Program-made: the position numbers and the translations under genes
Part shown: piece after piece, positions 29,039 through 53,533 of the stretch
Layout of the letters: each line of letters opens with the position of its first letter
How positions within the stretch are numbered: position 1 is the first letter of the stretch
Assembly (NCBI GenBank): GCA_023151275.1
Contig: JAKLJI010000001.1
Location: 458,409 to 522,408 of the forward strand
Source: Bacteroidia bacterium
Lineage (GTDB): Bacteria > Bacteroidota > Bacteroidia > UKL13-3
Direction: 5' to 3'
DNA: 64,000 nucleotides
The notes under the pieces: model-generated
Seen by the model: only the letters and a program-made list of their open reading frames with translations
Told to the model about the DNA's origin: nothing
Database searches by the model: none

Positions 29039-29044
29039 TGAAGT

Positions 29045-33200: not shown

Positions 33201-33377
33201 CAAGGATGACAGGTTTGGAGAATTGGTTATGACGTCAACCTGATTGGTGGTGACATCGGGAACTGCATCAATTGGCAGCTCCTTGAGGGAATAGCCTCCC
33301 CAGGCAGCAATAAGCAATACAAACAGCCCAATAGTCCATGGACTGCGTGTGCTGAACGCAATCAGTTTTTGAATCAT
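30225..33377 (-). CDS. CzcA/CusA-family heavy-metal RND efflux pump
   Basis: 1050 residues with the 12-TM RND layout; N-terminal LPIDAVPDVTTNQVDV is the heavy-metal (HME) family signature. The TM4 proton/metal motif is DFGLLVDPAIIVVES: acidic residues D400, D406 and E413 keep the spacing of CzcA D402/D408/E415 (recalled), but Gly after the second Asp is Pro and the usual VEN is VES. This favours a divalent-cation (Zn/Co/Cd/Ni) rather than Cu/Ag exporter, with an altered helix. It exports ions from periplasm or cytoplasm through the adaptor and TolC-like channel encoded next. Preceded at 44 bases by a small secreted protein. Confidence 0.93.
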   Translation of the reverse strand: MIQKLIAFSTRSPWTIGLFVLLIAAWGGYSLKELPIDAVPDVTTNQVDVITNSPNLSSLEIEKFITTPVEMAMANIPGLIEVRSNSKFGSSVVKLIFKDEIDIYWARQQVFERLQQVKSEIPEGAGDPIMGPPSTGLGEIYQYVIRPEDPDNPRHTLTEIRTIQDWEVRRKLLGLPGIADVSGYGGYTREYQAKLKPERMKALGITVDELHDALADGNSNTGGAYIEKDNKAYTIRGIGLAKNLEDIGNTVVRVNQGVPVLVKDVADVEYGHALRYGALTMNGKGDVVGGSILMMKGANGNEVIERIRERMAVIQAELPPGLVIEPFVDRSKLVNAAIKTVATNLIEGATIVLLVILLLLGNWRAGLIASSVIPLSMLFAFILMKYTGVVGNIMSLGAIDFGLLVDPAIIVVESSVFFLALGMQKAMREQNKSMLSYAERQELIIQSTGAILKSVVFGGLIILIVYVPILSLQGVEGKMFGPMAKTVGYAIIGSLILSLTYVPMMSALVLKPAATLHHQDIGTKIVEFFMKGIRPLLHLSLRFKKAVIAFAVLVVVVGVIGFSRIGGEFIPKLQEGDILIDMNLPIGTPLTESIAQSTNIQQFLMREFPDEIERIVSKIGTSEVKVDPLPLESQEIIVVLKDKKYWTKSKQQEELAALFNEKMKDFPGIILSIQQPIESRVNDMMSGARTDVVVQLYGPDLDTLVKKGNEIIQLVKTVPGAVDVQENKVFGLPQINIEYDRRAMAVYGIKAAQINRAVQLAFGGASAGLIYENDKRFDLSLRLVGNERQKKENIDNLMIEAQNGIPVPLKELATIREDVGPSEIGHEGLQRRVNLGFNVRGRDLESVVNDVIKKVDAGVNLSKEYRITYGGEFENFSRAKSTLAIVVPLSLLVILILLYLTFNNIRDSLLIYSVVPLSAVGGVLSLLIRDMNFSISAGVGFIALFGVAVLNGILLISHFNTLGTLGESDPDQRVLKGMEERIRPVLMTSLVAALGFLPMALSTSVGAEVQKPLATVVIGGLLISTLLTLFVLPVLYTLFTSKTKTHETSH

Positions 33378-33796: not shown

Positions 33797-33818
33797 AAAA
33801 AGCTGTCAATCAGCTTTT
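33797..33818 (-). terminator. Terminator of the PAS/phosphorelay operon
   Basis: AAAAGCTG (33798-33805) and CAGCTTTT (33811-33818) form an 8-bp stem with a 5-base loop; on the minus strand it ends in TTTTT. It lies 42 bases past the stop of the last operon gene. Confidence 0.7.
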
Positions 33819-35405: not shown

Positions 35406-38400
35406 TCAGGCCAGGTGTTCGTTAATTAGATTCAATAAAACGGAAATATCTATTGGTTTGGTAATATAGCCTTTTGCTCCAATTTTCATGAGTCCTGAAA
35501 TGGTTTCCGGCATTGCATCAGCACTTACCACATAAACAGGTATAGACCGGGTTTCATCATTTTTTAGAAGTTCTGCCAAGAATGTAGAACCATGCCCATC
35601 GGGAAGATTTAAGTCAAGAAAAATTAAATCGGGCTTGTGTTCCAGCGCAAGTTTTAGGGTGTCTTTGCCAAATGGGTGCGAAACAAGCTGTATTCCGGGA
35701 AATCGTAGACTCAACACATTTTCTAGCAATTCAACATTCGATTGGTTGTCTTCGATGTACAAGATTTTGCCTAAATTTTTTTTCAGTTTTTGTTCCTCAT
35801 CCTTAAGGATACTTTCAGCAATAAGATTTTTTTGTTGAACCTTAGAGGTTCTGAATTTTACCCAGAATGTACTGCCTTCTCCGAGCTGACTTTTTACGCC
35901 ATAGATTCCTCCCATGAGGTCTGTAAGTTGTTTAACAACCGCTAAACCTAGTCCTGTACCTTCGGTATTCACAGATTCGTCGCCAACCCTTTCAAAGGGT
36001 TGGAAGATGCGTTCCAAATCTTCTTGTGCGATTCCCTGCCCATTGTCCGAAATTTCAATTCTCATCCAGGTAAAACCCTGAATATCGACAGGGTTAGTTG
36101 AAACATTCACCCAACCTCCCGGTTTGTTGTACTTGATAGCATTTCCTATTAGATTTATCAGAATTTGTTTAATCCGTTGTTTATCGGCATCAATCATCCA
36201 ATCGTTTTCCAGTTTGGGAATATAGAGACTGATTTGATTCTTAGCTGCTGTTGGTTTCAGGAGGTCGCTAACTTCATCAAATACACTTTGAATAGATACG
36301 GGTTCAATGGAAATGGATATTCTGCCGGCTTCAATTCGCGAAATATCCAGCACTTCATTGATTAGATTAAGCAGGTGCTTACCACTTTTAAGAATATGGT
36401 TAACGCTTTTTTGTGCTTGCTGATTCAATTCACCCATTTCGAGCAATTGTGCAAAACCCAGAATGGAGTTCATGGGAGTTCTAAGTTCATGGCTCATGCG
36501 TGACAGGAAATCACTCTTAGCTTTGTTGGCAAGTTCAGCAGCTTCACGAGCTTGTTTCAAGGCATTTTCCTGCATAATTCTATCAGTAATGTCTCGCGCT
36601 GCGGAATAGATAAGCACGCCAACCGGAACACTATGCCATTCAATAAAGCGGAAACTGCCATCGGCTGTGCGGTAACGATTGGTAAAGCTTCGCACCAGGT
36701 TCTGGTTTTCCAGATTTTCTAAGGCCTGATATGTAGCTGGAATGTCTTCCGGATGAACGAAATTCATAAAGGATTGGCCTTCCAATTCTTCAACGGGATA
36801 ACCTAAAATGGTTCCCCAAGCTTTGTTTACTTTAATGAAATGGCCATTGATATCCGCAATGCAAAGCAAGTCAAGCGCCACATTGAAGAAGGTCTCCAAT
36901 TCTCGGGTTTTGAGTTGAAGCTCTTGGGTGCGTTCTTCAATTTTGGATTCAAGTCCGGAGTTCAACAGGCGGATTTCCTCTTCTGCTCGCTTCCTTTCCG
37001 ATACATCCTGTTTGATACTCATGTATCCGGTTATCTCACCGTTTTCATTGGCAAGCGGACTAATGCTCGTACTTTCCCAGTATTCAGTGCCATTCTTCCT
37101 CCGGTTAATCCATTCGTAATCCCAAGTTTCGCCTTTGTTAAGCGTTTCCCAAAGCTGCTTATACGCTTCTTTACCGGTTTTACCTGATTTGAAAATGCGG
37201 GTCTTTTTTCCAATCAATTCTTCAGGTTTGTATCCGGTTATTTTTAATGTACCCGGACTGGCATACAAAATTTCGGTTTCAAGGTTGGTTATGATAATCG
37301 CAACCGGACTTTGCTCTATGGCCTTGGTTAGTTTACGAATTTCTTCTTCTTGTAATTTTCGTTCGGTGATATCACGAACCATGCGAAGGACCCTGTTTTG
37401 CTCAAGCGGAACAATGCGACTCTCAAAGACCTTATGGCTTTGGTCGATATCAAATGCAGGGTATTCAATGGTTGTAATGATTTGGTTGCTTAGTGCTTCC
37501 TTAATTTTTTCAACCACTTTTTTACTGTATTCAGGTGATAACCAATTTGAGATATTGGTGTTTACATGGCCTGAATAATCACGTGTGCTGCTTACAGAAC
37601 TGGATCTTACATAATCAATGAAATTGCCTTGTTCATCGGAGATAAATACAGGGTCGGGAAGGGCATCAATAATTGCACTTAGTTGCTGGTTTTGTTGTTT
37701 GATTTGCTCTTCTTGTTGCTTTTGTTGAGTAATATTTATGTTTACTCCTTTTAGCCCAACTAGTAATTTGTTTTTGAAAATAGGAACGATGCTGTTTCTT
37801 ACCCATTTAATTCTTCCATCGGGCATTAGCAGTCTAATTTGGATGGTTTCTTCCTGCTGAAAACGGTTGATTTTTTCTAGGGTTTCATCAATCATATATC
37901 TGTCATCCGGATGGATAATGGACAAGTAGTTTTCAAAGGAAGGTGGATGTTCCTCTCGCTTACGTTCTATTAATTTGTAGTATGCATTAGAAAGTATCGT
38001 CTGTTGACTTGTAAAGTTGTATTCCCAACTTCCCATTTCAGCAATTTCTTGCGCATAGTTCAGTTCATCTTCCCGTTTTCTAAGCTCTTGTTCGGTTTGC
38101 TTGAGCGCAGAGATATCGATGGCTGTTGCAGCAAAATACAGGGGTTTGTTTTCTTTCATGATTAGCTTACCACTCATCAGAGTTGGAAATACATTCCCGT
38201 CGCGTGTAACATGATCCACTTCTTCGGCAGCAAATCCACCTTTTTGTTTCATTTCCTCAAGCAAAAAGAATACACGTGGTAATTGACTTTCATTGTGGAA
38301 AACAGTAAGGTTTTTCCCCAATAGCTCATCAGTTGAATAGCCATGCATTTCTGCAAAGGTTCTGTTGATGTAGGTAATTGTGCCATCCATCAACGTAATT

Positions 38401-41400
38401 GCTGTTCCGTAATTTGCTTCATCCGAAATCATCCGGAACTTATTCAATTCTTCCAGGGCCTGTTTTTTCTCAGTAATGTCGATATCAGAGCCCCTGAAGC
38501 CCATGATTTTTCCCACTTCATTGTAAAAGGGAATTCCATTGGTTGAAACCCAAATTAACTCACCACTTTTTTTAACAATGGGGTTTTCATATTCGCTTAT
38601 GGGTTGTTCTTGCTTAAAAAGTTCTTCAGCCTCTTGTTTATAAGCCTCTCTGATTTCTTCGGGATGGAGGTCGTAAAAGTACATTTTGCCGACAAGTTCT
38701 TCGGGTGTGTACCCGTAAACTTCGGCGGCCAATTGGCTTACGTATGTATATAAGCCTTCATTGTTTACTTCCCAAACCACAGTTTTACTTTGGCTTACCA
38801 CTTGGCTAAAGCGCTCTTCACTTTTCTTGAGTGCATTTTGAATGGCCTTAACTTCGGTAATTTCCTGCCAGCTTACAAAAGTTATATTCCCGTCTTTTTG
38901 ATTGATACTGGTTAAGGTAACCTCGCATTCAATGGTTGTACCATCTGATTTTTCATGTAGCCAATCAAAACTAAGTTTGCTTTTCTGTTTTGCAATTTCA
39001 AGATTCCGTATAACCAGCTCCTTACTAAGTACACCGTTCTTCTGAAACTCAGGTGAAATGTCGGTTGGTGTTTTTCCAACAATTTCCTCATAGGAATAAC
39101 CTAATAACTTGCAGGCGGCCTCATTGCAATCCGAGTACCTCCCGTCAATCATAATGAGGTGGGCATCCGGTGAACCAAAGAACAAACTCTTGAAGCGTTG
39201 CTCACTTTCTTCCAGCTTTAATCTTGCTTGCTTTTGGTCTGTGATATTGGTTGAATTCATCAGAGCTGCATAGGCATTTCCTTGTTCATCGCGAACAGGC
39301 TGTATGCTGGTTCTTAGCCAAAGCGTTTTTCCATTGATAAGCAAGGAGGGCTCAAACACTTTACCTGCATTGTTTTGAATAACCCAGGTAATGTTGTTGA
39401 TGATGTCCTTAAATTCTTCAGGTGAAACCAGTTCACCGGTTGACCTTCCAATTATTTCATCCGGGGTTTTGCCAAAATTTTGTGCGGCTATGGTATTGCA
39501 AAAGAGAATGATTCCTTCCGGGTCATAAAGCACCACGATGGAGTCTGTGCTTTCCACCAGGCTTCGGTATTTTTCTTCACTTTTTTGAATGAGTTTTTCG
39601 GTCCTTTTTCTGTCGGTAATGTCAAGGCCCATACATTGCATCTCAGAGGGCACACCATCATCGTTAGTGAGGCAAACAAATTCCCAAAGTGTCGTACGTA
39701 TGCTGCCATCTTTTTTGGGTTTATCCAGTTCAACCTGAATTACTTTTCCGGGTTCTGCAATACATGCATAAACGGCCTTTCTCATTTTGGGCCGTTCATA
39801 GTCCATTACCGTAAGCTCTGCATCGCCAGGTCTATGTTCTCTTCCTTCAAACAGAAAGCCACAATCCTCCTCAAACTTCTTATTCCAATAGGTATGCCTT
39901 CCCTGCATGTCGGTGCGCATCACATAAAGGGTTTGGTTTTCAACCATTTTTTCAAGACGTTCCTGGTTGCGTTTGAACTCAAGATCGTATGTTTTTTTGG
40001 TAGTGATGTCGCGGGTTACTCCAATCCAACCAATAATTTTTCCATTTTCATCCAGGTTCGGCTGAAAGTTGGTAGAGAACCAAAAAAGGTCCCCATTGCC
40101 TTTGTAGGCTTCTCCTTCGAGGTTCCAGGTTTTTCCAACAACTGAGCCTTCTTTTTGAATAGCTTGGCTCATTTCAAACCGAATGGAAAGTAGCTTGTCG
40201 TAAGTATCGGTGGTGTATCTTTCTGGGTCCTTCTTGGCTATGAATGATTCTGGACTTTCATCAAAAACCCGTATTACGGAGGGTGAAACATAGATAGGCT
40301 TAAACTCCGAGTCTGCTATCAAAATCATGTCCGAACTGTTTTCGGTGATTCTTTTGAATAAGGTTTCTTTTTCTTTCAGGTAATTGATTTGGTTGATGCG
40401 GTTGTGAATATTCACCAGCATTTCGGCAAATACCAACAACATGTCTTTCTCGATTTCGGTAAATACATGTTTCTTTTTTACGGCATCCAACCCAATAAAA
40501 CCTATGCAAACTCCTTGGTTCATGAGCGGAACCGTAATCATACTTTGGATGCCCTGAGGTTCCAGAATTTGGCGCATTGGATGCTTTTCTTCCAAGGCAA
40601 GCACATCCTGCACCTCCATAATTTTCCCGGTTTTGTGGGCATTAACCCAATCGGGAATATGATCAACCGGGAAATCTTGTAGGTTTTGAATTTCTGGGCT
40701 TATACCTTCTGCACACCATTCATAGGTATTGGTGCAGGTTTGTGCTTCAAAATTGTATTCAAAAATATAGAAGCGGTCGGTCTCAAAGTTCTCACCCAGC
40801 TCCTTCATGGTTTGCTGAATTTGGCAATCCACTTCCTCCAATGGAAGATTGATAAAGGTTTGAGCGTTTCGGGTTAATAATTTGTGACTGATATTCTGTT
40901 GTTGAAGGTTCTTTTGAGCTCTTACCTGCTCACTTACATTGTAAAAACTGGTAACAAAACGAAATGGAGTTTTTTCTCCCTCTTGGTATTCGGGTACCAC
41001 AGAAACTTCAAGCCAAAGCTTAGTGTCATTTTGCTTTAAGGATAGACCAATCAATTGAGAATATACCGGCTTGCCACTTGTTTTTGCTTTGATAAATGGA
41101 TGATCCTCTAATGCTATTGGCGTAAGGTCCGGATTTAGAATAGTCCAATCCGGACATGCATACGAGCAGCCTATAAGTTCTGATTTCGTCCTGCCGAGCA
41201 TTTTTGCTGCGGCAGAATTAGCTGCTGTAATAATTCCATCCGGGTTATGATACAGGATTCCAATTGAAATTTTTTCAAGTATATCCAGCAGTTGATTTTC
41301 ATCTTTTGTCTGGCTGGAAAAAACAAAGAGGCGAAGCGCTGTTTCATCCTGTGTGAAATCGAAATAGCTAACATGAATCGGAACTTTTTTTCCATCACTT

Positions 41401-41978
41401 TGCTGGAAGGTGGATTGGAACTGAAAACTGCTGTGTTCATTCAAAAAGAGTTCAGCATTTTCCGGATATTCAATGCCGGAAAACCCTAGGCCTTCAAACA
41501 AGGAGGAGTTTGGATTATCAGCTAGGTCAAATCCGGTTAATTTCTGATAAGCTTTGTTTGCATATACCAGTTTCTTTTCAGTTTTGTGGTAAACCAAAAC
41601 CGGTTCTGCAATTGATTTGAACAGATCTTGATTCTGTAAGCCATCGCCTCTGTTATTCGAAGGATTGGTTTCATTTTTGGCTTTCACCAATTCAAGTAAA
41701 TAGGATTCCTGATTTTGCTTAAGGTACGCAATCCAGTATCCCTGGTTTTCATCAATCAGGTTTATCCGAGCAGGGTTTTCTCCATTTTCAAGTCCTTGTT
41801 GCAAGGAAACGAACCAGGGTGTTTTGCATAGCTCTTCGGCATGCTGAAAAGGAAAGGCTGATTTTGGCTCTTTCCAAATGAGGTTAAAACCAGCATCCAA
41901 TAGCACAATACTACCTTTATCAACGGGATAGAGGGTATTGTGTTTTAGCTCGGTGAGTTGCCCTGTGCGGTATTCCAT
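35406..41978 (-). CDS. Giant soluble hybrid histidine kinase: about 12 PAS, GAF, HisKA, HATPase, REC
   Basis: 2190 residues without TM helices. About two PAS domains after a PAS-like N-terminus, a GAF domain (about 350-530), some ten more PAS/PAC units (to about 1805), a dimerisation domain with H1830 in MSHELRTPMNS, HATPase_c (NLIGNAIKY, DNGQGI, GTGLGLAV) and a receiver with D2122. It is the only protein in the five-gene operon with an ATPase domain and hence the probable phosphate source. It has its own -7 box 32 bases before the ATG, after the only sizeable gap in the operon (125 bases). Confidence 0.93.
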   Translation of the reverse strand: MEYRTGQLTELKHNTLYPVDKGSIVLLDAGFNLIWKEPKSAFPFQHAEELCKTPWFVSLQQGLENGENPARINLIDENQGYWIAYLKQNQESYLLELVKAKNETNPSNNRGDGLQNQDLFKSIAEPVLVYHKTEKKLVYANKAYQKLTGFDLADNPNSSLFEGLGFSGIEYPENAELFLNEHSSFQFQSTFQQSDGKKVPIHVSYFDFTQDETALRLFVFSSQTKDENQLLDILEKISIGILYHNPDGIITAANSAAAKMLGRTKSELIGCSYACPDWTILNPDLTPIALEDHPFIKAKTSGKPVYSQLIGLSLKQNDTKLWLEVSVVPEYQEGEKTPFRFVTSFYNVSEQVRAQKNLQQQNISHKLLTRNAQTFINLPLEEVDCQIQQTMKELGENFETDRFYIFEYNFEAQTCTNTYEWCAEGISPEIQNLQDFPVDHIPDWVNAHKTGKIMEVQDVLALEEKHPMRQILEPQGIQSMITVPLMNQGVCIGFIGLDAVKKKHVFTEIEKDMLLVFAEMLVNIHNRINQINYLKEKETLFKRITENSSDMILIADSEFKPIYVSPSVIRVFDESPESFIAKKDPERYTTDTYDKLLSIRFEMSQAIQKEGSVVGKTWNLEGEAYKGNGDLFWFSTNFQPNLDENGKIIGWIGVTRDITTKKTYDLEFKRNQERLEKMVENQTLYVMRTDMQGRHTYWNKKFEEDCGFLFEGREHRPGDAELTVMDYERPKMRKAVYACIAEPGKVIQVELDKPKKDGSIRTTLWEFVCLTNDDGVPSEMQCMGLDITDRKRTEKLIQKSEEKYRSLVESTDSIVVLYDPEGIILFCNTIAAQNFGKTPDEIIGRSTGELVSPEEFKDIINNITWVIQNNAGKVFEPSLLINGKTLWLRTSIQPVRDEQGNAYAALMNSTNITDQKQARLKLEESEQRFKSLFFGSPDAHLIMIDGRYSDCNEAACKLLGYSYEEIVGKTPTDISPEFQKNGVLSKELVIRNLEIAKQKSKLSFDWLHEKSDGTTIECEVTLTSINQKDGNITFVSWQEITEVKAIQNALKKSEERFSQVVSQSKTVVWEVNNEGLYTYVSQLAAEVYGYTPEELVGKMYFYDLHPEEIREAYKQEAEELFKQEQPISEYENPIVKKSGELIWVSTNGIPFYNEVGKIMGFRGSDIDITEKKQALEELNKFRMISDEANYGTAITLMDGTITYINRTFAEMHGYSTDELLGKNLTVFHNESQLPRVFFLLEEMKQKGGFAAEEVDHVTRDGNVFPTLMSGKLIMKENKPLYFAATAIDISALKQTEQELRKREDELNYAQEIAEMGSWEYNFTSQQTILSNAYYKLIERKREEHPPSFENYLSIIHPDDRYMIDETLEKINRFQQEETIQIRLLMPDGRIKWVRNSIVPIFKNKLLVGLKGVNINITQQKQQEEQIKQQNQQLSAIIDALPDPVFISDEQGNFIDYVRSSSVSSTRDYSGHVNTNISNWLSPEYSKKVVEKIKEALSNQIITTIEYPAFDIDQSHKVFESRIVPLEQNRVLRMVRDITERKLQEEEIRKLTKAIEQSPVAIIITNLETEILYASPGTLKITGYKPEELIGKKTRIFKSGKTGKEAYKQLWETLNKGETWDYEWINRRKNGTEYWESTSISPLANENGEITGYMSIKQDVSERKRAEEEIRLLNSGLESKIEERTQELQLKTRELETFFNVALDLLCIADINGHFIKVNKAWGTILGYPVEELEGQSFMNFVHPEDIPATYQALENLENQNLVRSFTNRYRTADGSFRFIEWHSVPVGVLIYSAARDITDRIMQENALKQAREAAELANKAKSDFLSRMSHELRTPMNSILGFAQLLEMGELNQQAQKSVNHILKSGKHLLNLINEVLDISRIEAGRISISIEPVSIQSVFDEVSDLLKPTAAKNQISLYIPKLENDWMIDADKQRIKQILINLIGNAIKYNKPGGWVNVSTNPVDIQGFTWMRIEISDNGQGIAQEDLERIFQPFERVGDESVNTEGTGLGLAVVKQLTDLMGGIYGVKSQLGEGSTFWVKFRTSKVQQKNLIAESILKDEEQKLKKNLGKILYIEDNQSNVELLENVLSLRFPGIQLVSHPFGKDTLKLALEHKPDLIFLDLNLPDGHGSTFLAELLKNDETRSIPVYVVSADAMPETISGLMKIGAKGYITKPIDISVLLNLINEHLA

Positions 41979-42103: not shown

Positions 42104-45100
42104 TTAGCCATTTGGTAACTTTAATCGGGGGTGGTTTTTAATGTCTGCAAGAATTGAACTCGTAATTGGTTTTGTTAAGTATTCAATCACCTGTGGGTAC
42201 TGTTGAGCCTTCAACCTATCCTGTATTTCTACAGATGAAGTTAATATGACAACATTGATTTCGCAGTCGAGCGGCGCTTTAGTGATTTCATCCAAAAACT
42301 CCCAGCCGGTCATTTTTGGCATATTGATATCAAGGAATAGCAGGAAGCGGATAGATTTGTCGTTTTTACTTCTCAAAAATTGAAGCGCCTCCAGACCATT
42401 GGGCATCAACCTGGGATTTTGGCTTAAGCCTGATTTCTGAACCATGGTTTTATGAATGGTTTGAATCATCTCATCGTCATCCACCAAAAGAACTTCTTGT
42501 GTTAAGGTTTGAATGTTCTTAGGTTCAGTTTTTTCTCCTTTGGGGTTGCTGTGATTAAGGTTGTTGGCCACGTAGGTTTTTTCTGCAATGTTTTTAATTA
42601 CCTTATCCAGTTCATTCGCAGAATCTTTAACAGATTTGATAAGTTCATTCTCCGGAAGAATACTGAAATCTTTTTCCACAAAAACATCCATCAATCCCAT
42701 AAGCCTTGCCAATGGAGCCCTAACCACATGCGATTGTGTCCATGCAATATCACGCATTACCTTGTTTTGATTTTCCAGCGCTTCAAAGTATTGGTTGCGT
42801 TCGGTTATATCATGTACAATTTCATGCACCAATTCAAGATTTCCAGATTCAAGTAGGGTAGAGAAGGCTTCCACATCCCGAACAGTGCCGTCTTTCAGGC
42901 GGTGCTTGAGTTCGGTACGGATATGTTTTTCAGTGCGTAGCTTTTCAATTTTTGATTTTACTTCATCTGTTTTTGGATTGATATTTTTGAGGTTTAAGCG
43001 AAGAAATTCCTCCCGATTGAAGCCATAGAATTGCAGAGCTGCATTGTTTACATCAACCATATTCAATGAAGAGGCATCCAGTAGATACATGGGTGAGGCA
43101 TTGGCTTCAAAAAGATTACGGAAGCGCTGTTCACTTTGTCTAAGTTCCTGAATTGCTTTTACCCTCGAGGTAATATCCATGAAGGTATAAACCGCATATT
43201 CATTAAAATTCATATAGCCTATATCCAGGTACTTGTAGCTTCCATCTTTGCACCTCACTTTGGTTTCCATGGAGACATAAGCGGATTTGGCATGCTCTGC
43301 TTCCTGAACAAGTTTCAAGCGTTTTTGCTGGATGGAAATTCGATAGGCTTCATCCGGATAAGCAAGCAATTGCCAGGTAGTTACATCTGGAATTTCACCT
43401 GGGCTATAACCGGTAATCTCAGTGAATTTTTGGTTTACCATGATTACCTGATGATTTGGGGCTACAGTCGACATACCAATTGGAGAGTATTCAAAGAGTT
43501 CTCTGAAACGGGTTTGACTGGTGCTGAGCTCCTGTTCAACACGCTTGAGTTGGGTGGTTTCAAAACTTACACCCGCAGTTCCAATAATTTTTCCTTCCGA
43601 ATTTCTAACCGGGAACTTGTTGGAGAAAAAGTAGCGAATCGCTTTTTCTTTATCCGATTTCTGCTGCCCGGAGGTCCAAGTTTCTGGATGCCATTCTTCA
43701 ACCTGAATGGTATTTCCCTGCTGAATAACCTGCTGGTCGTGGCTCAAAAACATTTCGGCGATATCGGTTGGAAACAGGTCAAAATCGGTTTTACCTACGA
43801 TATCTTCTGCGGCAAGCCCTAAGGTTTTTTCAAATTGTTGATTAACCAGCTCGTAGCGTCCATCCAAATCTTTTCGGTAAACGGTAGCTCCTGAAAAGTT
43901 AATAAGGTCGCTAAGCAAGAATTCACTTTCTCTGAGCTCCAATTCCGCTTTTTTACGTTTGGTGATATCCGAGCAAACACCAATATAACCGGTAAGTTTA
44001 TGGTGCTCATCCCGAATAGCTTCCAGTTTTATTTCAACCCAGATTCTTTTACCTGAGCTATGAATGCCTTCCAGCTCACGCACAGGTATAGGCTCAATGC
44101 GTTCCTTTTGCATTCTAAGTTTTTCAATGCTTTCCAAAATTATTTGCTGCGACTCTTCGGTATAGCATTGTAAGAGTGCATTGGTTTTGTATTCTTCCGG
44201 ACTAATACCAAATATTTTGTACGAGGAAGGACTCACATAAGTAGCATTCATGTTGGCATCTATGGTAAATACCATGTCCGACATGTTTTCACTGATTTGG
44301 CGGTATTTGCGTTCACTGTCTTCCAGCTTCCACAAGGCCTCCTTCTTATCAGTGATGTCTTCTTTTACGGCAATAAAGTGAGTGATTTCCCCTTTGTTAT
44401 TCTTTAATGGACTGATAGATGCTTGTTCCCAGTAAAAGCTTCCATCCTTTTTCTTGTTCAGAAACTCGCCTGTCCAGGTTTGCCCATGCGTGATATTGTT
44501 CCATAGTTTTTCGTATTCTGTTGAAGGCTTATTCCCCGATTTTAATATTCTTGGATTTTGTCCAAATGCTTCATCGCGGCTATAGCCTGTAACTTCACTG
44601 AATTTTTTGTTTACATACTCAATTTCACCTGCCAGGTTGGTGATTACAATGCTTACTGGGCTTTGTTCTACGGCAAGGGATAATTGACTTATTCTAATTT
44701 CATTTTCTTTTCGTTCGGTTATGTCTTGATGGGTACCTGCCATGATAAGCGGTTTTCCATCTGAGGTGTACTCAAATACTTTACCTTTATCAAGTATCCA
44801 AATATAATGCCCATCTTTATGCAGCATGCGGTATTCGGCTTCATAGAATTCGGCTTCTCCCTTGAAGTAGTCTTCAAGTTTTTTGTTCACGCCATCCAAA
44901 TCTTCCGGATGCGTTAATCTGTCGAAAGTTTGAATGGTTATAGGGAACAGGTCCAATAGGGTATATCCCAAAATAGCAGCCCAGCGTTCGTTGAAAATGG
45001 TTTCGCCGGTTTGCACATTCCATTCCCAGGTACCTACATTGGTACCTTCAATAACATTGTTTAGTCTGTCTCTTTCTTTTTGAAGGGCTTCTTCAAACAA

Positions 45101-46834
45101 ACGTAATTGATGGATGTCCTGAAAGGTGCCAACCAATTTGATGCATTTGCCATTTTCGTATACTGTTTTTCCAATGGTACGCACCCATTTTTTATTACCT
45201 TTCGCGGTAATGATTTGGAGTTCCAAGTCATATTCCAAACCGGTTTCAATGGCTGTTTTTACGGCCCGTTCAAGCACAGCCCGACTAAAATCTGCATCGT
45301 AAAAAAGAATTGCTGTTTCTAAATTTGGTTCAAAATCATCGGGCAGTTCATGGATTGCTTTTGTTTGGTTTGACCAGGTAAGCTTTTGATTAATTAAATC
45401 GAGTTCGAAACTTCCTATTTTGGCCATATTTGCCGTTTTTTCCAGCATTTCCCGGGTTTGGTTCAATTCCATTTCCCGTAGTTTGCCTTCGGTAATGTCT
45501 CTAGCGATACCACTGAAGTTAACAATATTGCCATTGGAGTCATATACTGGTCCTGAGGTTGAATTGATCCAGCGAACACCTTTGGTTGGATGAATAATTC
45601 GGTAAGTCTGCTCCTGCCTTTCAGATTTTGAAGGGTTGGAAAGCCTTTGCTTTACGATTTCAACATCATCCGGATGCAGTATTTTGAAAAAGGTTTCAGA
45701 GCGATTATTAAACTCATTAGGCTTTATGCCAAACAGGTTCTCAAAGGAAGGGCTTAAGTACAGTAGGTTTTTATTTTCTTTGTCTCTAAGCCAGAACACC
45801 TCTTCAATGCTTCGTGCAATGGCGTTAAATTGGTTGAGGTTTTTAGTTGACTCTTCTTCTGCCACCTTCAAACGGGTAATGTCAAGAACAGTACCCATCG
45901 TACGCTGAGGTTTTTTCTCTTCATCAAAAATCGTTTGGCAATGCAGTAATAAATGTTTCCCGGTTTTTTGCGCTGTAACAACCCGAAAATCAATTTCTAG
46001 TTCAATTCCATTTAGCAAATGGTTTTCAAATGCATTTTCAAAGCCTTGCCAATCATCGGGATGCACCCTTTCAAAAAAATCACTCAGAAGGCCATTGAAC
46101 TTTTCGGGTTCTATGTCCATGATTTTGAACATTTCCGAACTCCAAGAGAAAATGCCGGATTCCGGCTCGTATTCCCAGAATCCGAGGTCCGCCATTTTAT
46201 GAATTTGTCTCAGGCGCAAGGAGGTTTCCTGAATTTTTTGGTTTTCCAGCTTCAGTAGTTCGTGGGCTAGTTGTAGCTCGAGCTGCGTTTCCCGTTTTGA
46301 TGAAATATCCGAAAGACTAATGCGCATCAAGCGTTCTTCATTTTCTGATTCCGAAATTGAAGTTTGGCAATTCACATCTGCGTAGAACTCTTCCTCCTTG
46401 CCTAAAAACTTGAGCTCAGTTGATGAAACACTTTCCTCCTGCTGCCAGGCTTTTTTAAGAAAAAGATACCATTGATCCTGGTAATCACTTGCTATGAAAT
46501 CGTGAATTTCTTTACCAACAATTTTTTCTTTGGATACACCAAATAGCTTCTCGCATTTCTTATTGCAATCCAGAATAACGGATTTTTGATTCAATGCCAG
46601 GTAGCCAATTGGAGCCTCATCAAACAGCTCCTGATAGCGTTTGCTTGTGGCTTCTATTTGCTCATAACTATGGGCAAGTTCCTTGTTTTGAAATTCAAGT
46701 TCCTGTTGGTAGATGCTTAGGGTTTCCAGAATTTCTTCGATGGGCTTTTCTTTTAGTTTATCAATATCCAAACCCGGATTGCCCAATGCTTTCCGGATAA
46801 GGTCTTGCAGTTCTTGATTGGTTGAGACTTTCAT
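42104..46834 (-). CDS. Ten-PAS protein with DHp and receiver but no ATPase domain
   Basis: 1576 residues, soluble. A short N-terminal coiled coil (QQELEFQNKELAHSYEQIEA) of the kind that accompanies CheB/CheR-linked sensors, ten PAS/PAC units (about 55-1335), a histidine dimerisation segment with H1369 in AWTQSHVVRAPLARLMGL, and directly a receiver (about 1450-1570) with DDD, D1502 in FLDINMP and TKPI. The 80 residues between DHp and receiver are too short for HATPase_c and contain no N/G boxes. It therefore cannot autophosphorylate in the usual way; a His/Asp phosphotransfer module is the likely function. Starts six bases after the CheB-CheR gene. Confidence 0.9.
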   Translation of the reverse strand: MKVSTNQELQDLIRKALGNPGLDIDKLKEKPIEEILETLSIYQQELEFQNKELAHSYEQIEATSKRYQELFDEAPIGYLALNQKSVILDCNKKCEKLFGVSKEKIVGKEIHDFIASDYQDQWYLFLKKAWQQEESVSSTELKFLGKEEEFYADVNCQTSISESENEERLMRISLSDISSKRETQLELQLAHELLKLENQKIQETSLRLRQIHKMADLGFWEYEPESGIFSWSSEMFKIMDIEPEKFNGLLSDFFERVHPDDWQGFENAFENHLLNGIELEIDFRVVTAQKTGKHLLLHCQTIFDEEKKPQRTMGTVLDITRLKVAEEESTKNLNQFNAIARSIEEVFWLRDKENKNLLYLSPSFENLFGIKPNEFNNRSETFFKILHPDDVEIVKQRLSNPSKSERQEQTYRIIHPTKGVRWINSTSGPVYDSNGNIVNFSGIARDITEGKLREMELNQTREMLEKTANMAKIGSFELDLINQKLTWSNQTKAIHELPDDFEPNLETAILFYDADFSRAVLERAVKTAIETGLEYDLELQIITAKGNKKWVRTIGKTVYENGKCIKLVGTFQDIHQLRLFEEALQKERDRLNNVIEGTNVGTWEWNVQTGETIFNERWAAILGYTLLDLFPITIQTFDRLTHPEDLDGVNKKLEDYFKGEAEFYEAEYRMLHKDGHYIWILDKGKVFEYTSDGKPLIMAGTHQDITERKENEIRISQLSLAVEQSPVSIVITNLAGEIEYVNKKFSEVTGYSRDEAFGQNPRILKSGNKPSTEYEKLWNNITHGQTWTGEFLNKKKDGSFYWEQASISPLKNNKGEITHFIAVKEDITDKKEALWKLEDSERKYRQISENMSDMVFTIDANMNATYVSPSSYKIFGISPEEYKTNALLQCYTEESQQIILESIEKLRMQKERIEPIPVRELEGIHSSGKRIWVEIKLEAIRDEHHKLTGYIGVCSDITKRKKAELELRESEFLLSDLINFSGATVYRKDLDGRYELVNQQFEKTLGLAAEDIVGKTDFDLFPTDIAEMFLSHDQQVIQQGNTIQVEEWHPETWTSGQQKSDKEKAIRYFFSNKFPVRNSEGKIIGTAGVSFETTQLKRVEQELSTSQTRFRELFEYSPIGMSTVAPNHQVIMVNQKFTEITGYSPGEIPDVTTWQLLAYPDEAYRISIQQKRLKLVQEAEHAKSAYVSMETKVRCKDGSYKYLDIGYMNFNEYAVYTFMDITSRVKAIQELRQSEQRFRNLFEANASPMYLLDASSLNMVDVNNAALQFYGFNREEFLRLNLKNINPKTDEVKSKIEKLRTEKHIRTELKHRLKDGTVRDVEAFSTLLESGNLELVHEIVHDITERNQYFEALENQNKVMRDIAWTQSHVVRAPLARLMGLMDVFVEKDFSILPENELIKSVKDSANELDKVIKNIAEKTYVANNLNHSNPKGEKTEPKNIQTLTQEVLLVDDDEMIQTIHKTMVQKSGLSQNPRLMPNGLEALQFLRSKNDKSIRFLLFLDINMPKMTGWEFLDEITKAPLDCEINVVILTSSVEIQDRLKAQQYPQVIEYLTKPITSSILADIKNHPRLKLPNG

Positions 46835-46839
46835 AGAAA

Positions 46840-49800
46840 CTAAGAATTTCTGATATCAAGGGATAGTATAATGGCATGAATAGGCTCTGGTTCTTTGTTC
46901 GATTTTTTTATTCTGAACCTAAATTTTATCAACTTGCCTTCTTTAGTAGTAATCGAAAAATTGTTCTGCTGAAATAGTTCTGTATGCTGAAGTGCTTCTT
47001 CATAGAGGTTATAGTTTTCAGCTACTTTTCTTCCCCCGATTTTGAGTTTTAATTTTGCAGACGGAAAGGGTTTTCCAAGTAACTCCTCCCGCTCCACATC
47101 GAGTATCTTAGCAAATTGAGTGTTTAGCACTCTTAAGCTGTTTTCAGGACTAACAACAACCAAAGGGGTATCCAATAAATCGAAGGTAGATTCCAGGGTT
47201 TTTTCCATGTTGAGTTTATCGAGTTCTATGTCTTTCAATCGACTCACGTCTATCACGGTCCCAACAAGGGTTAATGGCATCCCTTTTTCATCCCTTTCGG
47301 TAATCACGCCCCTGTCGAAATACCAACCATAAGAGCCATCTTTGCGTTTGATACGGTAAGTAGAAATCCATTCAGCAGCTCTTCCTTCCAGGTGTTCTCG
47401 CATATCCTGCATGGTTTTTTCATAGTCATCCGGATGAATGAGGGCAGTAATACCATAAATGTCTTTTGGAAACTCTTCCAGTGTATAACCCAACATGGTT
47501 GCTTTTCGATCATCCATCAGCACTTTGCCACTGTGTCTATCCCATTCCCACCATGCCATCCTGCCCATTCCTAAAGCTTCCTGTAGTCGTTTGGTTGTAA
47601 GCTTAAGTTGAATTTCACCGGTTTTGATTCGGGTGATATTTACAAAGGTGATAAGGATTCCCTCTATGGCATTGTTTTCTGTGCGGTAAGGCAAAATACG
47701 TACTTGATAAATGGTTCCATTTGCAGCCTGAATTTCATTCTCAATAGGCTGAAGGTTTTCTGCCACCTGTTCAATATCCTTAACCATTCCGGGATAAACA
47801 TCTCCCAAGGAAATATGCGCAATGGGCCTTCCGCTGTCTGTAGGAAGAATATGGGTGATATTGGATACCAAAGGAGTAAGCTTTCTGATACACAAGCGTG
47901 AGTCAAGATAGAGCGCCCCTACCTCTGTATTTCTAAGTAGGTTATGAATATCTGTATTGGTCTTGGTAAGCTCGTTTATTTTGCTTTGAAATTCTGAGTT
48001 AACGGTAAACAATTCTTCGTTTACAGATTGTAGTTCCTCGTTTGTGCTCTGCAATTCTTCGTTTGAAGCAATTAATTCTTCATTACTGGATTGCAGTTCT
48101 TCGTTGGCTGTTTCTAATTCCTCTACAGTGGCTTGCAAACTCACTTTGGTGTATTGCAATTCACGTTTAATTTCTTCGTAAGCATTGAGGTTGATTCGTA
48201 CTTCTGTACCGGTATCCGTGTTTTCATTATCAGTAAGGGTTGGTTCTTCTTTGAAGGAAATAAGCTGTTGTGTTCCGCTTCCGGTCTGAAGATTTCGAAT
48301 ATCTACTCTTATTTTTCGTTTTGCTTCCTGGTCAAATAAGCTGACACTTTCACTGAGAAAGGCCATGCGTTCTTTTCTTGCTTTTTGAATCAAGGTTTTC
48401 AAAACAACTCCAAATTCAGGTTGCAAGTGGTCATACAAGATTTGCGAGAACTTTCCGGGTCTTAAGGTAAGGTAGGGTGTTGTATCGTTTATCAGTTGAA
48501 GCAGATTGTCTTGTTCATCAATAATTACTGTTGGTGGAGCAAGAATATTCAGCAGATTTTCCTGCGAGAATTCGCTTCGAATTGCTTTTGAGCGGTGTTC
48601 TTGTGGAATAGTCGAATTCGGATTTATTTCCTGCATTTCAGGAACCTGCAGATGCGATTGACGAATGGTATCATGCAATTTAAAATTTCGTTTTACCCGA
48701 TAGATTTTCCAGCGATTGTCAACGGTTTCAAAGGCATCAGACAAGCTCCCCAAGGTTTCGCTGCTTCCCATGAATAGATAGGAACCGGGTTTAAGGCTGT
48801 AAAAGAATGAGGTGAGGAGCTGGTTTTGCATTTCGGGTTTGAGGTAAATGAATAAATTACGACAAACCAATAGGTCGAGTTTTGAAAATGGCGGATCCTT
48901 GAGCAAATTGTGTCGGGCAAAAACAATTGATTTGCGGATGTTTTCATTAATTTGATATCCGGCTTCTCTTCGCGTGAAGTATTTATTAAGTCGTTCTTGA
49001 TCAATGTCTCCGGCTATGCTGTCTGAATAGAATCCACTGCTAGCTTGTTCAAGTGCATGCTTGTCAACATCGGTGGCAAATATTTTCAAGTCACAGGATA
49101 AATTATTTTTATCCAGGTAATCCTGCACCATCATGGCCAGAGAATACACTTCTTCTCCGGTTGAGCAACCTGTAGACCAAATCCGGATAGATGGGGGTCT
49201 GTTTTCAAGAAGTGCAGGAATCACGTGATTCTCCATGGTTGCAAAGGCTTGTCCATCTCGGAAGAAGCTTGTAACACCAATGAGGAGTTCACGGTATAAA
49301 GTTTCTTTTTCTTTGGTAGATGAATTTAAAAATTCAAGGTATTCATCAATACTGTTCAGGCGATTGATGCTTACCCTTCTTTCAAGCCTGCGAATGATGG
49401 TGTTCTCTTTGTACCAGGTGAAGTCAATACCGCAATGGTCGCGTAAGATCATGCAGATTTTGGCGATTGTTGTGATATCTCGGGTGAGAATATTTTCGAT
49501 GGGTTTATTGCCCTGTGAAAAGGGGTGACGGATAAAGTTCAATAAAGCTTCTGGCATCTGTGCCGGACTTAGGATAAAATCAACCAAGCCGGTAGATATG
49601 CAGCTCTTCGGCATCCCATCAAAGCGCGCAGAGGAAGTATCCTGGGCCATAATCATGCCTCCTGCCTCTTTTATGGCTTTTGTTCCAAGGGTTCCGTCTG
49701 ACCCTGTTCCAGATAATACAATACCAATGGCTTTGTTGCCTTTTTCTTTTGCCAATGATTTAAAAAAGATATCTACCGGAAGGTTTAGACTTTTGGTGTG

Positions 49801-50133
49801 ATTCTGCGGTTCAAGGAATATTTTATTGTGAAAGACCGAAATGTTTTTACCGGGTGGAATAAGGTAAACATGATTGGACTCTAATTCCATAAGATGCTCG
49901 GCAATATGAATGGCCATGCTGGTGTGCCTTGCCAGCAGCTCATTCATTAAGCTTTTGTAATCCGGTGAAAGGTGCTGGATTACCACAAATGCTAGTCCGG
50001 AATCAACCGGCATTGCTGTAAACAATTCCTGAAGGGCGTCAAGACCACCGGCAGAAGCTCCAATGGCTACAATATCTGGACTCGCTTTTTGGACAATGGT
50101 TGGGTCTGATTTTTTTCGTGTATTCTTTTTCAT
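46840..50133 (-). CDS. CheB-CheR-PAS fusion protein
   Basis: 1097 residues. A CheB methylesterase domain (about 18-205) with the triad S27 (GASAGG), H54 (IQHLSP) and D146 (SGTGSDGT). A CheR methyltransferase (about 220-490) with SAM-binding TGCSTGEE at 321-328 and [13 protein letters not shown]-like segment, a heptad coiled coil of repeated NEEL units (about 668-718) and three further PAS units. No receiver in front of CheB and no kinase core. Such fusions modify or sense through methylation, but no MCP, CheA or flagellar gene is in the window. It is 16 bases downstream of the LOV/PAS protein and 5 bases upstream of the ten-PAS protein, so it shares their operon. Confidence 0.93.
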
Positions 50134-50149: not shown

Positions 50150-53100
50150 TTAAAAAAAGCCGATGAGTTTTGGGTGCTTTTTGATTGAATCTAGCAATTC
50201 TGCATTTAATGGTTTGGTTTGATAATCAATTACCCGATTGAAATTATTCGCCCTTAGCTTGTCGTCAAGGTCGATAGAAGAGCTTAACATGATAACCCGA
50301 ATATCTCCCTTGAATTCATGGTTTTCCAATTCAGTTAGGAATTGCCATCCATTCATGCCGGGCATATTGATGTCGAGGAATATCAAGAAGTTTTCGTCTA
50401 ATTGAGCTCTACCAATTAGTGAATCTAATGCAGATTCTGCGGTAAAATAAACCTCAGGTTCTTGCGAGAAACCTTGCTTTTTGATAACCGCTTTTTGGAG
50501 AAGCTGAACCATTTTGTCGTCATCAATCAGTAACACATGCAGCGGAGTTTCTTTGGCCAATGTGCTTGTTTTAGCTTTGGTTTCAGTAGAAATTTCTTTT
50601 AAACTGTTTGCTACAAATGATTTTTCTGCAATGTCTTTGATAATGGTATCAAGTTCATTGGCAGAATCATTCATCATGGAAATGATTTGCTCTTGGCTCA
50701 AATTTTCCTGGCTCGAATCTTGAAGTAATTCCATCAAGCCCATTAAGCGAGCCAATGGGGCTCTTACCACATGAGATTGAGTCCAGGCAATGTCTCTGAA
50801 TATTTTATTCTGTCTTTCAAGTGCCTTGAAATAATTATTCCTATCGGTAATATCATGCACCGTTTCATATATTACCTCTTTGCCATTGAAGTTAATTAAA
50901 CTGCAAAATACCTCTACGTCAATTAGACTATTGTCTGCCTTACGGTGTTTGAATTCAAACCGAACACCTTTTTTCTGACGGAGTTCATTGAAAAGGTGAT
51001 TAAAATCGCTGATGCTCGCATTGATACAACTCAGGTGTTTCCCGATGACATCCGATTTTTTGTAGCCATAAAAGCTTTCACATGCAGGATTAATCTCTGT
51101 AATGTTTCCGGTAAGCGGGTCAATCAACAGCATCGGTATGATATTTCCTGTGAACAGGCTTTTGAAGCGCTCCTCACTGTCGCGTAGGGCTTGTTTAGCT
51201 TCTTCTTCAGCCGACACGTTTTTGCTAAACACAGAAGCACCTGTAACCCGGTTGTTGATGATTATTGGGTTCATCGAAACATCTACATAGTAGGTATTTA
51301 TTTCGGTAGGAATTCGTTCGGTAAAATGAATTTTCTCACCAGCAAAAACCTTGTCATATCTTTCTTTCCACCTTTCTTGAAGCATTTTCGGCAGTAAAGA
51401 GATGATGGAATCACCCGGCAATAAGAAGTGACCAAACGCATTTCTAAACTCATTTGAGAAAACCTCATTTGAATAAATAACCCGGTAATGTCTATCAACA
51501 GACCAAACACTTTCTGAGCTTGAATTGAGTAAGGCTTTAAGATTTGCTTCGCTTTCAAGCAAAGCCAATTCAATGTTTTTTAATTGGGTAATGTCTTTTT
51601 GAACGCCTAAGAAGTGCGTTAATTTTTTAGCTTGATTGAAGATGGGGGATATGCTCAGCTGGTTGTAGAATAGTTTACCTTGTTTGGTATAATTTTTTAG
51701 AACCACCGAGATGGGTTTGGCCTGACGAATGCATTCCCTAAGGAGGTCTAATCCGTTTTGGTCTTTGTCTTCCGATTGAAGGAAGCGACAATTTTTTCCA
51801 AGAACATCCTCTTTGGTATAGCCAGTTAAGTAACAAAAGGCGTCGTTCACATAAATCAGCGGAAAATCAGGTTTCTCAGCAGTTGCCAATGTTATGCTTA
51901 CTGTACTCGAATCAATGGCTTGTTTAAGCAGGTAAATTTGTTCTTCGTGTTTCTTTTCCTGAGAAATATCTGTATCAGAGCCTTGATAGCCAATCAAGTT
52001 TCCAGCCTCGTCAAATAAGGGAAAGCCGTTTGTTGAAACCCAAATTTGTTCTCCGGATTTGGTTTGAATAGGATTAACCAAGCTTCTAAAACTCTCTCTT
52101 CTGGCCAGAACTTTTTGTACATTTTCAATAAACTCTTCCCTGCCTTGAATCGGATGCAAATCAAAATAGTACAGTTTTCCTTCCAGTTCTTCCGGAGCAT
52201 AGCCAACAAGTTCTTTGCTTGATTTACTTACATAGGTAAACAGTCCGCTTTGGTCAATTTGCCAAGCCATGGTTCGGGTATGAATGCCAATTTCTTCAAA
52301 GCGATTTTGGGCTTCAAGCATTTGCCTTTCGGCATCTTTCCGTGCACTGATATCTTTTAAAAATGCAGTGAACTGAAATCGACCCATAAATTCCACTTTA
52401 GACAAAGACAAATGAACCCAAACCATGGAGCCGTCTTTGCGCTTTACCTCAAACTCTCTACCTGATCCGGCAACCCGGTTGATACCAGTATTCAAATTGG
52501 TTTCAATGGCATGGTCGTGGGCAGCCCGGTCTTGCATGGGCAAAACGATATTTACGTTTGCCCCAATAAGTTCTTCCTTGGAGTAGCCGAGTAATCTTTC
52601 TGTGGAAGGGTTCGCAAAAATGATTTCTTTTTTATCGTTAATGGTAATAACCGCATCAACTGCCTGCTCAAGCGTGAGTTCCATTAGCCTGTGCAGTTCT
52701 TCAATTTCGTTTTTCTGATTTTCGAGCAGTTTTATTTTTTCTTGAAGCTCCAGCTCTGAGGCTATCAAATCTGTGATGTCGGCTACAACTCCAAAAGAGC
52801 GAATAGGATTGTTGTGCTCATCAAAACTTGTTTTGCAGCGTTCTCGGATGTATTTGGTTTGTCCCGAGTTGGTGATAATGCGGTGCACGATATCATATCT
52901 GCTTTTGTGTAAAAGGTGATTGTCGTAGGCTTCCTTTACTTTTTGCCTGTCATCGGGATGAATAAATTTGAGAAATGCTTCATAGCTATCATCAAATTCA
53001 TTGAGCTTGCAATCAAAGAGTGTAAAGACCTCATCCGACCAAAAAAGCCGATTCGTGGCCAAATCAAGCTCCCAGTGGCCCATCTTGGCAACCTCGTAAG

Positions 53101-53533
53101 CCTGTTTAAGCAAGAGCTCACTTTGACTTGCCCACTTGATGGCTTCATTTTGGAGAAGTGTTTTTTCTGATTTTGATGGCTCCGCGTGCAGGAACAATTG
53201 AAGTTTTTCGAGTCCGCCTTCTAAAAATCGTAAGCCGGAAATGGAGATAGGTCTGCTTTTCTGCCTCGGTCTTGTTAAATGAATCCTTAATTCTTCTCCA
53301 TTGTCTAAAGCGCCTTCCGGACGAATAAAGTCATTGAATTTATCCGCATAGTTTGAATCAATCAAGGTTGAAAAGGCTTGGCCAATAAAGGAGTTTGCAG
53401 CTTTGTTTACCAGCAATTCAAAGGCCTTATTGCACGAAAGAATTGCGCCCGATTTAAGCTCCAGCTGAAGTGCCGGCATCGGGATTCTTTCCTGAATGTT
53501 TTCGTAGCTTGTTCCTGTGAGTTGCTTTTTCAT
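50150..53533 (-). CDS. LOV/PAS-array protein with DHp and receiver but no ATPase domain
   Basis: 1127 residues, soluble, first gene of the operon. Seven PAS-type units; the fifth (about 535-649) is a LOV domain with GKNCRFLQ, photoactive C582, and flavin contacts R583, Q586, R599, N614, N624 and Q645 at the same offsets from Cys (+1, +4, +17, +32, +42, +63) as in phototropin-type LOV domains. Then a dimerisation segment with H921 in AWTQSHVVRAPLARLMGL, and a receiver with DDD, D1054 in FLDINMPGM and TKPL. No N/G boxes lie between. Expected to be a blue-light-responsive phosphotransfer protein; other PAS inputs unknown. The start follows a divergent intergenic region with no obvious TAnnTTTG on this strand. 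Confidence 0.92.
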   Translation of the reverse strand: MKKQLTGTSYENIQERIPMPALQLELKSGAILSCNKAFELLVNKAANSFIGQAFSTLIDSNYADKFNDFIRPEGALDNGEELRIHLTRPRQKSRPISISGLRFLEGGLEKLQLFLHAEPSKSEKTLLQNEAIKWASQSELLLKQAYEVAKMGHWELDLATNRLFWSDEVFTLFDCKLNEFDDSYEAFLKFIHPDDRQKVKEAYDNHLLHKSRYDIVHRIITNSGQTKYIRERCKTSFDEHNNPIRSFGVVADITDLIASELELQEKIKLLENQKNEIEELHRLMELTLEQAVDAVITINDKKEIIFANPSTERLLGYSKEELIGANVNIVLPMQDRAAHDHAIETNLNTGINRVAGSGREFEVKRKDGSMVWVHLSLSKVEFMGRFQFTAFLKDISARKDAERQMLEAQNRFEEIGIHTRTMAWQIDQSGLFTYVSKSSKELVGYAPEELEGKLYYFDLHPIQGREEFIENVQKVLARRESFRSLVNPIQTKSGEQIWVSTNGFPLFDEAGNLIGYQGSDTDISQEKKHEEQIYLLKQAIDSSTVSITLATAEKPDFPLIYVNDAFCYLTGYTKEDVLGKNCRFLQSEDKDQNGLDLLRECIRQAKPISVVLKNYTKQGKLFYNQLSISPIFNQAKKLTHFLGVQKDITQLKNIELALLESEANLKALLNSSSESVWSVDRHYRVIYSNEVFSNEFRNAFGHFLLPGDSIISLLPKMLQERWKERYDKVFAGEKIHFTERIPTEINTYYVDVSMNPIIINNRVTGASVFSKNVSAEEEAKQALRDSEERFKSLFTGNIIPMLLIDPLTGNITEINPACESFYGYKKSDVIGKHLSCINASISDFNHLFNELRQKKGVRFEFKHRKADNSLIDVEVFCSLINFNGKEVIYETVHDITDRNNYFKALERQNKIFRDIAWTQSHVVRAPLARLMGLMELLQDSSQENLSQEQIISMMNDSANELDTIIKDIAEKSFVANSLKEISTETKAKTSTLAKETPLHVLLIDDDKMVQLLQKAVIKKQGFSQEPEVYFTAESALDSLIGRAQLDENFLIFLDINMPGMNGWQFLTELENHEFKGDIRVIMLSSSIDLDDKLRANNFNRVIDYQTKPLNAELLDSIKKHPKLIGFF

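What the first reader, a model, noticed from the sequence alone, without database searches (positions are those of the whole stretch)
51586..51931. Canonical LOV photoreceptor domain inside a PAS array of a phosphotransfer-like protein
Residues about 535-649 of the 50150-53533 product contain GKNCRFLQ with photoactive C582, and Arg583, Gln586, Arg599, Asn614, Asn624 and Gln645 lie at offsets +1, +4, +17, +32, +42, +63 from Cys, the same spacing as in plant phototropin LOV2 (recalled from known structures). Seen directly: the residues and spacing. Known: these positions bind flavin and form the Cys adduct under blue light. Inferred: light controls the attached histidine/receiver module although the protein has no ATPase domain.
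Basis: partly seen in the sequence, partly recalled or inferred. Interest (0 to 1): 0.82.

Follow-up and report, generated by a model that had tools for sequence, protein, structure and literature searches.

The report
Blue-light sensor on kinase-less phosphorelay protein
A bacterial signalling protein carries a genuine blue-light-sensing (LOV) domain, but where a normal light-regulated kinase would have its ATP-using engine it has only the phosphate-accepting histidine hairpin and a receiver, and the engine is most likely supplied by a neighbouring gene; the light sensor is ordinary, the kinase-less output is a widespread Bacteroidota module for which I found no description.

Summary
Gene 50150-53533 (minus strand, 1127 aa) holds a complete LOV core at residues 535-660; Cys582 and all six flavin-contact positions have the canonical spacing. 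It matches YtvA-family models and PDB LOV proteins (E 8e-34), and its predicted fold overlays short-LOV crystal structures at 1.1-1.6 A. The output end is the unusual part: PAS-DHp-REC with no ATPase. In the sample its histidine is invariant (125/125), but the next residue is acidic/Asn in only 11/125, versus 55/55 in ATPase-bearing kinases from the same loci. About half lie beside a single-domain receiver; here one is fused. The gene leads a five-gene set that also encodes CheB-CheR-PAS, a second PAS-DHp-REC protein and a complete hybrid kinase. A Balneolia genome has the same plan: LOV-DHp protein, CheB-CheR (54% identical), kinase, receiver. Best reading: a Spo0B/ChpT-like phosphotransfer hub fed in trans by the operon's kinase and biased by blue light. 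Photochemistry is near certain from sequence; the phosphotransfer role is inferred, not shown.

The parts
50150..53533 (-). LOV-PAS array-DHp-REC protein, 1127 aa
51587..51931 (-). LOV core (residues 535-649; homology extends to about 660)
51788..51790 (-). photoactive Cys582 codon (TGT) in GKNCRFLQ
50588..50851 (-). ATPase-less DHp hairpin (about residues 895-982) with H-box IAWTQSHVVRAPLAR
50771..50773 (-). His921, presumed phospho-acceptor; the next residue is Val, not the acidic/Asn residue seen in ATPase-bearing kinases
50192..50536 (-). receiver domain (1000-1114) with complete acceptor site: D1004-D1006 region, D1054, S1084, K1107
46840..50133 (-). CheB-CheR-coiled coil-PAS protein, 1097 aa, no receiver and no kinase domain; CheB and CheR motifs intact
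42104..46834 (-). second PAS-array-DHp-REC protein, 1576 aa, same ATPase-less H-box, one NifL-type PAS (GQNPRIL)
35406..41978 (-). hybrid histidine kinase, 2190 aa: PAS/GAF array, HisKA (SHELRTP), HATPase, REC; proposed phosphoryl source
33860..35404 (-). REC-PAS-DHp-REC protein, 514 aa; the second REC has lost the acceptor Asp (VFVNTDL)
33798..33818 (.). hairpin between the end of the gene set and the RND efflux genes, possible terminator
   Evidence: consensus match only

Best explanation
This is a cytoplasmic blue-light receptor in which a standard FMN-binding, cysteinyl-adduct LOV domain sits in the middle of a PAS array whose output is an ATPase-less DHp hairpin fused to a receiver. Steps: (1) blue light forms the Cys582-flavin adduct (inferred from complete conservation); (2) the change passes through the linker helix and two downstream PAS domains to the dimeric DHp bundle (inferred); (3) the DHp cannot phosphorylate itself, because there is no ATPase and the residue beside the histidine is Val, so it acts as a Spo0B/ChpT-like phosphotransfer station: the operon's hybrid kinase (41978-35406) makes the phosphoryl group, which moves between receivers (the kinase's own REC, the fused REC, the N-terminal REC of the last protein) through His921 (inferred); (4) light shifts this relay and so biases the fused REC and its partners, with the CheB-CheR protein as a further component whose target is not a chemoreceptor (no MCP in the assembly). 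Shown: domains, residues, gene order, conservation contrast, recurrence in another class. Not shown: flavin binding, coupling, phosphotransfer, direction, output.
For: Complete LOV signature, LOV-specific matches and fold. No HATPase in the protein; 108 of 112 related proteins end right after the hairpin, 4 continue only into a REC, none has an ATPase. Histidine invariant 125/125 while the next residue is E/D/N in only 11/125, against 55/55 in ATPase-bearing kinases; histidine also invariant, 70/70, in loci not chosen with the H-containing pattern. 53 of 112 have a same-strand single-domain REC within 300 bp. Intact REC acceptor site. A complete kinase lies in the same gene set. The plan recurs in G166: LOV-DHp protein, CheB-CheR (54%), kinase, REC, without LOV in G078, and with a hybrid kinase in L079 (CheB-CheR 61%).
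Against: No biochemical data. The LOV is two PAS domains away from the DHp. The relay partner is assigned by proximity only, and one transcript is not shown. The sample of relatives is not independent (shared ancestry), and most of it was fetched with a pattern that fixes His, though not the next residue. A few members keep E/D/N after the histidine. The closest full-length relative (L077) has no LOV, so light is not an essential input of this output type.
Confidence: 0.55

Rival explanations
1. Partner exchange: the ATPase-less DHp forms mixed dimers with the DHp of the operon's hybrid kinase, as RetS does with GacS, and either inhibits that kinase or is phosphorylated in trans by its ATPase domain; light changes the tendency to form mixed dimers.
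For: A profile of the hairpin family finds in the PDB 7n0e, 7z8n and RetS 6dk7/6dk8 (E 5e-7 to 0.03; that 7n0e is a RetS-GacS complex is recalled, not checked). A full kinase is in the same gene set.
Against: These hits may only reflect the general HisKA fold. The kinase H-box (SHELRTPMNS) and the rest of its DHp differ clearly from the family motif. Pairing with, or fusion to, receivers fits phosphotransfer better.
Confidence: 0.2
2. The DHp is only a dimerisation stalk; its histidine is not phosphorylated. Light acts by changing how well the operon kinase phosphorylates the fused receiver.
For: The acidic residue next to the histidine is lost; a two-helix dimer could serve as a mechanical relay.
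Against: The histidine and the surrounding QSH-VRAPLAR are invariant across the sample, which a passive stalk would not need.
Confidence: 0.15
3. The LOV domain is flavin-bound but used mainly as a redox or structural element, not as a light switch.
For: The sister protein carries a NifL-type PAS (GQNPRILKSG; NifL model 135 bits), a type that senses redox through FAD in NifL (established knowledge). The LOV is sporadic: no other Cys-LOV was found in the 64-genome family set.
Against: Cys582 and every tested flavin-contact residue are conserved, and the G166 relative also keeps NCRFLQ.
Confidence: 0.08

Closest known systems
Bacterial LOV photoreceptors (PpSB2-LOV, PF5-LOV, YtvA, LOV histidine kinases)
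   Same: Same domain fold and complete signature; 1.1-1.8 A to short LOV structures.
   Different: Those domains are stand-alone, joined to STAS, or joined to a kinase with an ATPase; here the LOV is internal to a PAS array with a DHp-REC end. LOV joined directly to a response regulator is known (PMC4844311), but not with this DHp as far as I found.
Histidine phosphotransferases derived from kinases: Spo0B, ChpT, PhyT
   Same: DHp-type hairpin with phosphate-accepting His and no working autokinase; phosphate moved between receivers (PMC3433190; PMC5898713).
   Different: ChpT and PhyT keep a degenerate ATPase-like domain, and Spo0B has a C-terminal domain (recalled). Here that domain is absent, a sensor array precedes the hairpin and a REC follows it. 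Phosphotransfer has not been shown.
Truncated histidine kinases lacking HATPase (Archaeoglobus fulgidus family noted in a 2005 census, PMC1183210)
   Same: Kinase-like architecture without ATPase.
   Different: Different phylum; no sequence comparison made here.
Hybrid histidine kinases
   Same: Sensor array, DHp and REC in that order.
   Different: No ATPase domain; residue after His is Val, not E/D/N.
RetS (with GacS)
   Same: Weak profile match of the hairpin family to RetS and GacS-type DHp.
   Different: RetS keeps an ATPase-like domain (recalled); no evidence here of mixed dimers.

Membership tests
LOV photoreceptor domain | GXNCRFLQ with photoactive Cys | tested here: met
   GKNCRFLQ, Cys582
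LOV photoreceptor domain | flavin-contact R, Q, R, N, N, Q at +1, +4, +17, +32, +42, +63 | tested here: met
   columns conserved in the alignment with 25 other Bacteroidota LOVs
LOV photoreceptor domain | closest to LOV rather than other PAS in sequence and fold | tested here: met
LOV photoreceptor domain | FMN binding, 450-nm band, light-driven adduct | not testable with these tools
   needs purified protein
Sensor histidine kinase (HisKA + HATPase) | HATPase_c domain | tested here: not met
   no match at E 0.1; the hairpin is followed only by a linker and REC
Sensor histidine kinase (HisKA + HATPase) | acidic or Asn residue after the phospho-acceptor His | tested here: not met
   Val922; 55/55 in ATPase-bearing kinases of the sample
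Sensor histidine kinase (HisKA + HATPase) | HisKA-type hairpin with His | tested here: met
   25.3 bits in the whole protein, below the 26.9 cut-off, but all 14 isolated hairpins match HisKA, 32.1 bits for this one; helical hairpin in the model
DHp-type histidine phosphotransferase (Spo0B/ChpT-like) | conserved His on a DHp hairpin without working autokinase | tested here: met
DHp-type histidine phosphotransferase (Spo0B/ChpT-like) | phosphate transfer between receivers through that His | not testable with these tools
   needs biochemistry
Pfam Hpt (PF01627) | four-helix Hpt profile | tested here: not met
   no Hpt match in this protein; the only match in the assembly is elsewhere, C74
Chemotaxis CheB/CheR pair (neighbour gene) | methyl-accepting chemoreceptor present to act on | tested here: not met
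   no PF00015 match in the 98.3% complete assembly; the same search rings in 7 of 14 control genomes

The most novel reading that the evidence does not exclude
Bacteroidota carry a large, apparently undescribed class of sensory histidine phosphotransfer proteins (PAS arrays ending in an ATPase-less IAWxQSHxVRAPLAR DHp, often paired with or fused to a receiver). These sensors regulate a relay instead of a kinase, and here one is under blue-light control together with a CheB-CheR protein that has no chemoreceptor to modify.
Probability: 0.42. Interest if true: 0.68.

Novelty: new variant of a known kind. Interest (0 to 1): 0.5.

Why it matters
If right, environmental input (light here, other PAS signals elsewhere) enters at the phosphotransfer step of a relay instead of at the kinase. 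That would explain many Bacteroidota proteins that look like broken kinases. It also offers a light-switchable, kinase-free phosphotransfer module, and links CheB/CheR chemistry to signalling in a genome that shows no chemoreceptors.

Tried and rejected
Rejected: LOV by chance or generic PAS. Rejected: truncation or frameshift as the reason for the missing ATPase; 108 of 112 relatives stop at the same point, and of the 125 ATPase-less rows only six had more than 40 residues after the hairpin. Rejected: Ala at +4 as a mark of the family, because ATPase-bearing kinases show it too (11 of 55) and the collection pattern fixed it. Not supported: descent of the LOV within the window's own family; among 64 genomes no other Cys-LOV was found. 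Not a true LOV: the G177 hit reads GKSPRFLQ and has a normal kinase end. The LOV tree puts this LOV nearest G166's by path length, but the forks are weakly supported. A close full-length relative (L077, pond MAG) has the same PAS-PAS-DHp-REC end without LOV, so the LOV looks like a modular swap. My first residue comparison used a search pattern that itself required E/D/N/Q/A after His; it was replaced by the alignment-based count. Paper searches for ATPase-less DHp proteins found nothing specific to Bacteroidota; most subscription papers are not held. Promoter scans were uninformative.

Full report
OBSERVATION. The finding lies in a minus-strand ORF, 50150-53533, 1127 residues. GKNCRFLQ is there, with Cys582 at 51788-51790 and R583, Q586, R599, N614, N624 and Q645 at the canonical offsets. 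Sequence search against solved structures returns short LOV proteins, YtvA, phototropin-2 LOV2 and LOV kinases (best E 7.6e-34). NCBIfam's YtvA model matches over the domain (189.6 bits, best stretch 535-668; below its whole-protein cut-off, so this is domain identity only). A model built from 26 Bacteroidota LOVs (pLDDT 95.5) matches only LOV proteins and LOV fusions among its listed best hits, with 1.1 A to PF5-LOV 7r5n and 1.6 A to PpSB2-LOV 7a6p. FMN binding and adduct formation are inferred from this.

ANATOMY OF THE PROTEIN. Pfam finds a PAS array, a sub-threshold HisKA at 920-968 and a receiver at 1000-1114, with no HATPase. The predicted structure of 785-1127 is PAS, then two long helical segments forming a hairpin, then a receiver. 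The receiver keeps its acidic pocket, Asp1054, Ser1084 and Lys1107. The LOV is not next to the hairpin: two PAS domains intervene. A close full-length relative in a pond MAG (L077) shares the PAS-PAS-DHp-REC end but has other PAS domains in place of LOV, so the LOV is a module set into a variable array.

THE ATPASE-LESS HAIRPIN IS A FAMILY. Aligning hairpins from relatives gives IAWxQSHxVRAPLAR...SAxELDxxIxxI, nearly invariant. Of 112 such proteins with readable context, 108 end right after the hairpin and 4 continue only into a receiver (window proteins among them); none has an ATPase. Fifty-three have a same-strand single-domain receiver within 300 bp. On a joint alignment, ATPase-bearing kinases from the fetched loci have E, D or N after the histidine in 55 of 55. 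The ATPase-less group keeps the histidine in 125 of 125 but has E, D or N in only 11, mostly V, L or I. Part of the sample was selected by a pattern that fixes the histidine but leaves the next residue free; in loci not so selected the histidine is again invariant (70 of 70, both groups together). Keeping the phosphate acceptor while losing the residue tied to kinase catalysis (established knowledge for HisKA kinases) is what one expects of a phosphotransfer station.

THE NEIGHBOURHOOD. Downstream, tightly spaced and on the same strand, are CheB-CheR-PAS (50133-46840), a second PAS-array-DHp-REC protein (46834-42104), a complete hybrid kinase with HisKA, HATPase and REC (41978-35406), and a REC-PAS-DHp protein whose last receiver has lost its acceptor Asp (35404-33860). 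A hairpin follows at 33798-33818. The missing ATPase activity can thus come from the gene set's own kinase. The assembly (98.3% complete) has no MCP signalling domain, so the CheB-CheR protein is not part of ordinary chemotaxis here. That the five genes form one transcript is inferred from spacing and strand.

THE SAME PLAN ELSEWHERE. In a 395-genome Bacteroidota sample 38 genomes have a strong LOV match, this one included; the best outside this genome, 53% identical, is in G166. It lies in a 1575-aa protein that also ends in the ATPase-less hairpin and is followed by CheB-CheR (54% identical), a HisKA-HATPase kinase and a single receiver. G078 of the same genus has this order without a LOV in the part held. 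That genus is probably Balneolia, judging by the equal contig length of G158:C6 and JAIUMA010000006.1; the tools place it in the same phylum but not the same class as the window. A Chitinophagaceae MAG (L079) has the closest CheB-CheR (61%), with a DHp protein on one side and a hybrid kinase on the other. Most of the other LOV proteins whose context I read have an ordinary kinase end; the rest are short LOVs or ends that my models did not recognise. In the window's own family no other Cys-LOV was found among 64 genomes.

MECHANISM. Most likely, blue light acts on the LOV, the change travels through two PAS domains to the DHp bundle, and this biases phosphoryl flow from the operon kinase through His921 to the fused and partner receivers. 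Shown: the domains, their residues, the gene order, the conservation contrast and the recurrence. Inferred: photochemistry, coupling, phosphotransfer, direction of flow and output. The known phosphotransferases Spo0B, ChpT and PhyT are the nearest functional parallels (PMC3433190, PMC5898713). LOV-receiver fusions are known (PMC4844311), and truncated kinases lacking HATPase were noted in Archaeoglobus (PMC1183210). The rivals are mixed dimers in the manner of RetS-GacS, a passive dimerisation stalk, and a LOV used for redox.

VERDICT. The LOV domain is a new member of a known kind. The light-sensor-on-kinase-less-relay architecture is a new variant, repeated in what is probably another class of the phylum, and rests on a large family that I could not find described in the open-access papers searched; absence there is weak evidence, since most subscription papers are not held.

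Noticed in passing
window 42104-46834, residues about 717-840: The sister PAS-DHp-REC protein carries a NifL-type PAS (GQNPRILKSG; NifL model 135 bits) where a LOV would read NCRFL, so the gene set may combine light and redox inputs.
   Followed up: partly
window 33860-35404: The C-terminal receiver of the 514-aa REC-PAS-DHp-REC protein is degenerate (acceptor Asp replaced by Asn, VEE instead of VDDD).
   Followed up: no
window 46840-50133: CheB-CheR-PAS protein without receiver or kinase part, in an assembly with no detectable MCP; its closest relatives (51-61% identical) lie beside ATPase-less DHp proteins and a kinase.
   Followed up: partly
L298 (G034) and L297 (G005): Same-family genomes have LOV-like PAS domains without the Cys; G034's reads GKNPRILQGPDTD in a protein that ends in the ATPase-less DHp, G005's is in a protein with an ATPase.
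   Followed up: no
window 600-26743: The rest of the window is rich in PAS or GAF sensor kinases (3690, 5883, 17489, 23792) and has a DabA-like inorganic carbon transporter (600-3110).
   Followed up: no
window 27881-33377: RND efflux genes (membrane fusion protein, outer membrane factor, AcrB-type pump) follow the signalling gene set on the same strand after a 480-bp gap; they could be an output but nothing ties them to it.
   Followed up: no
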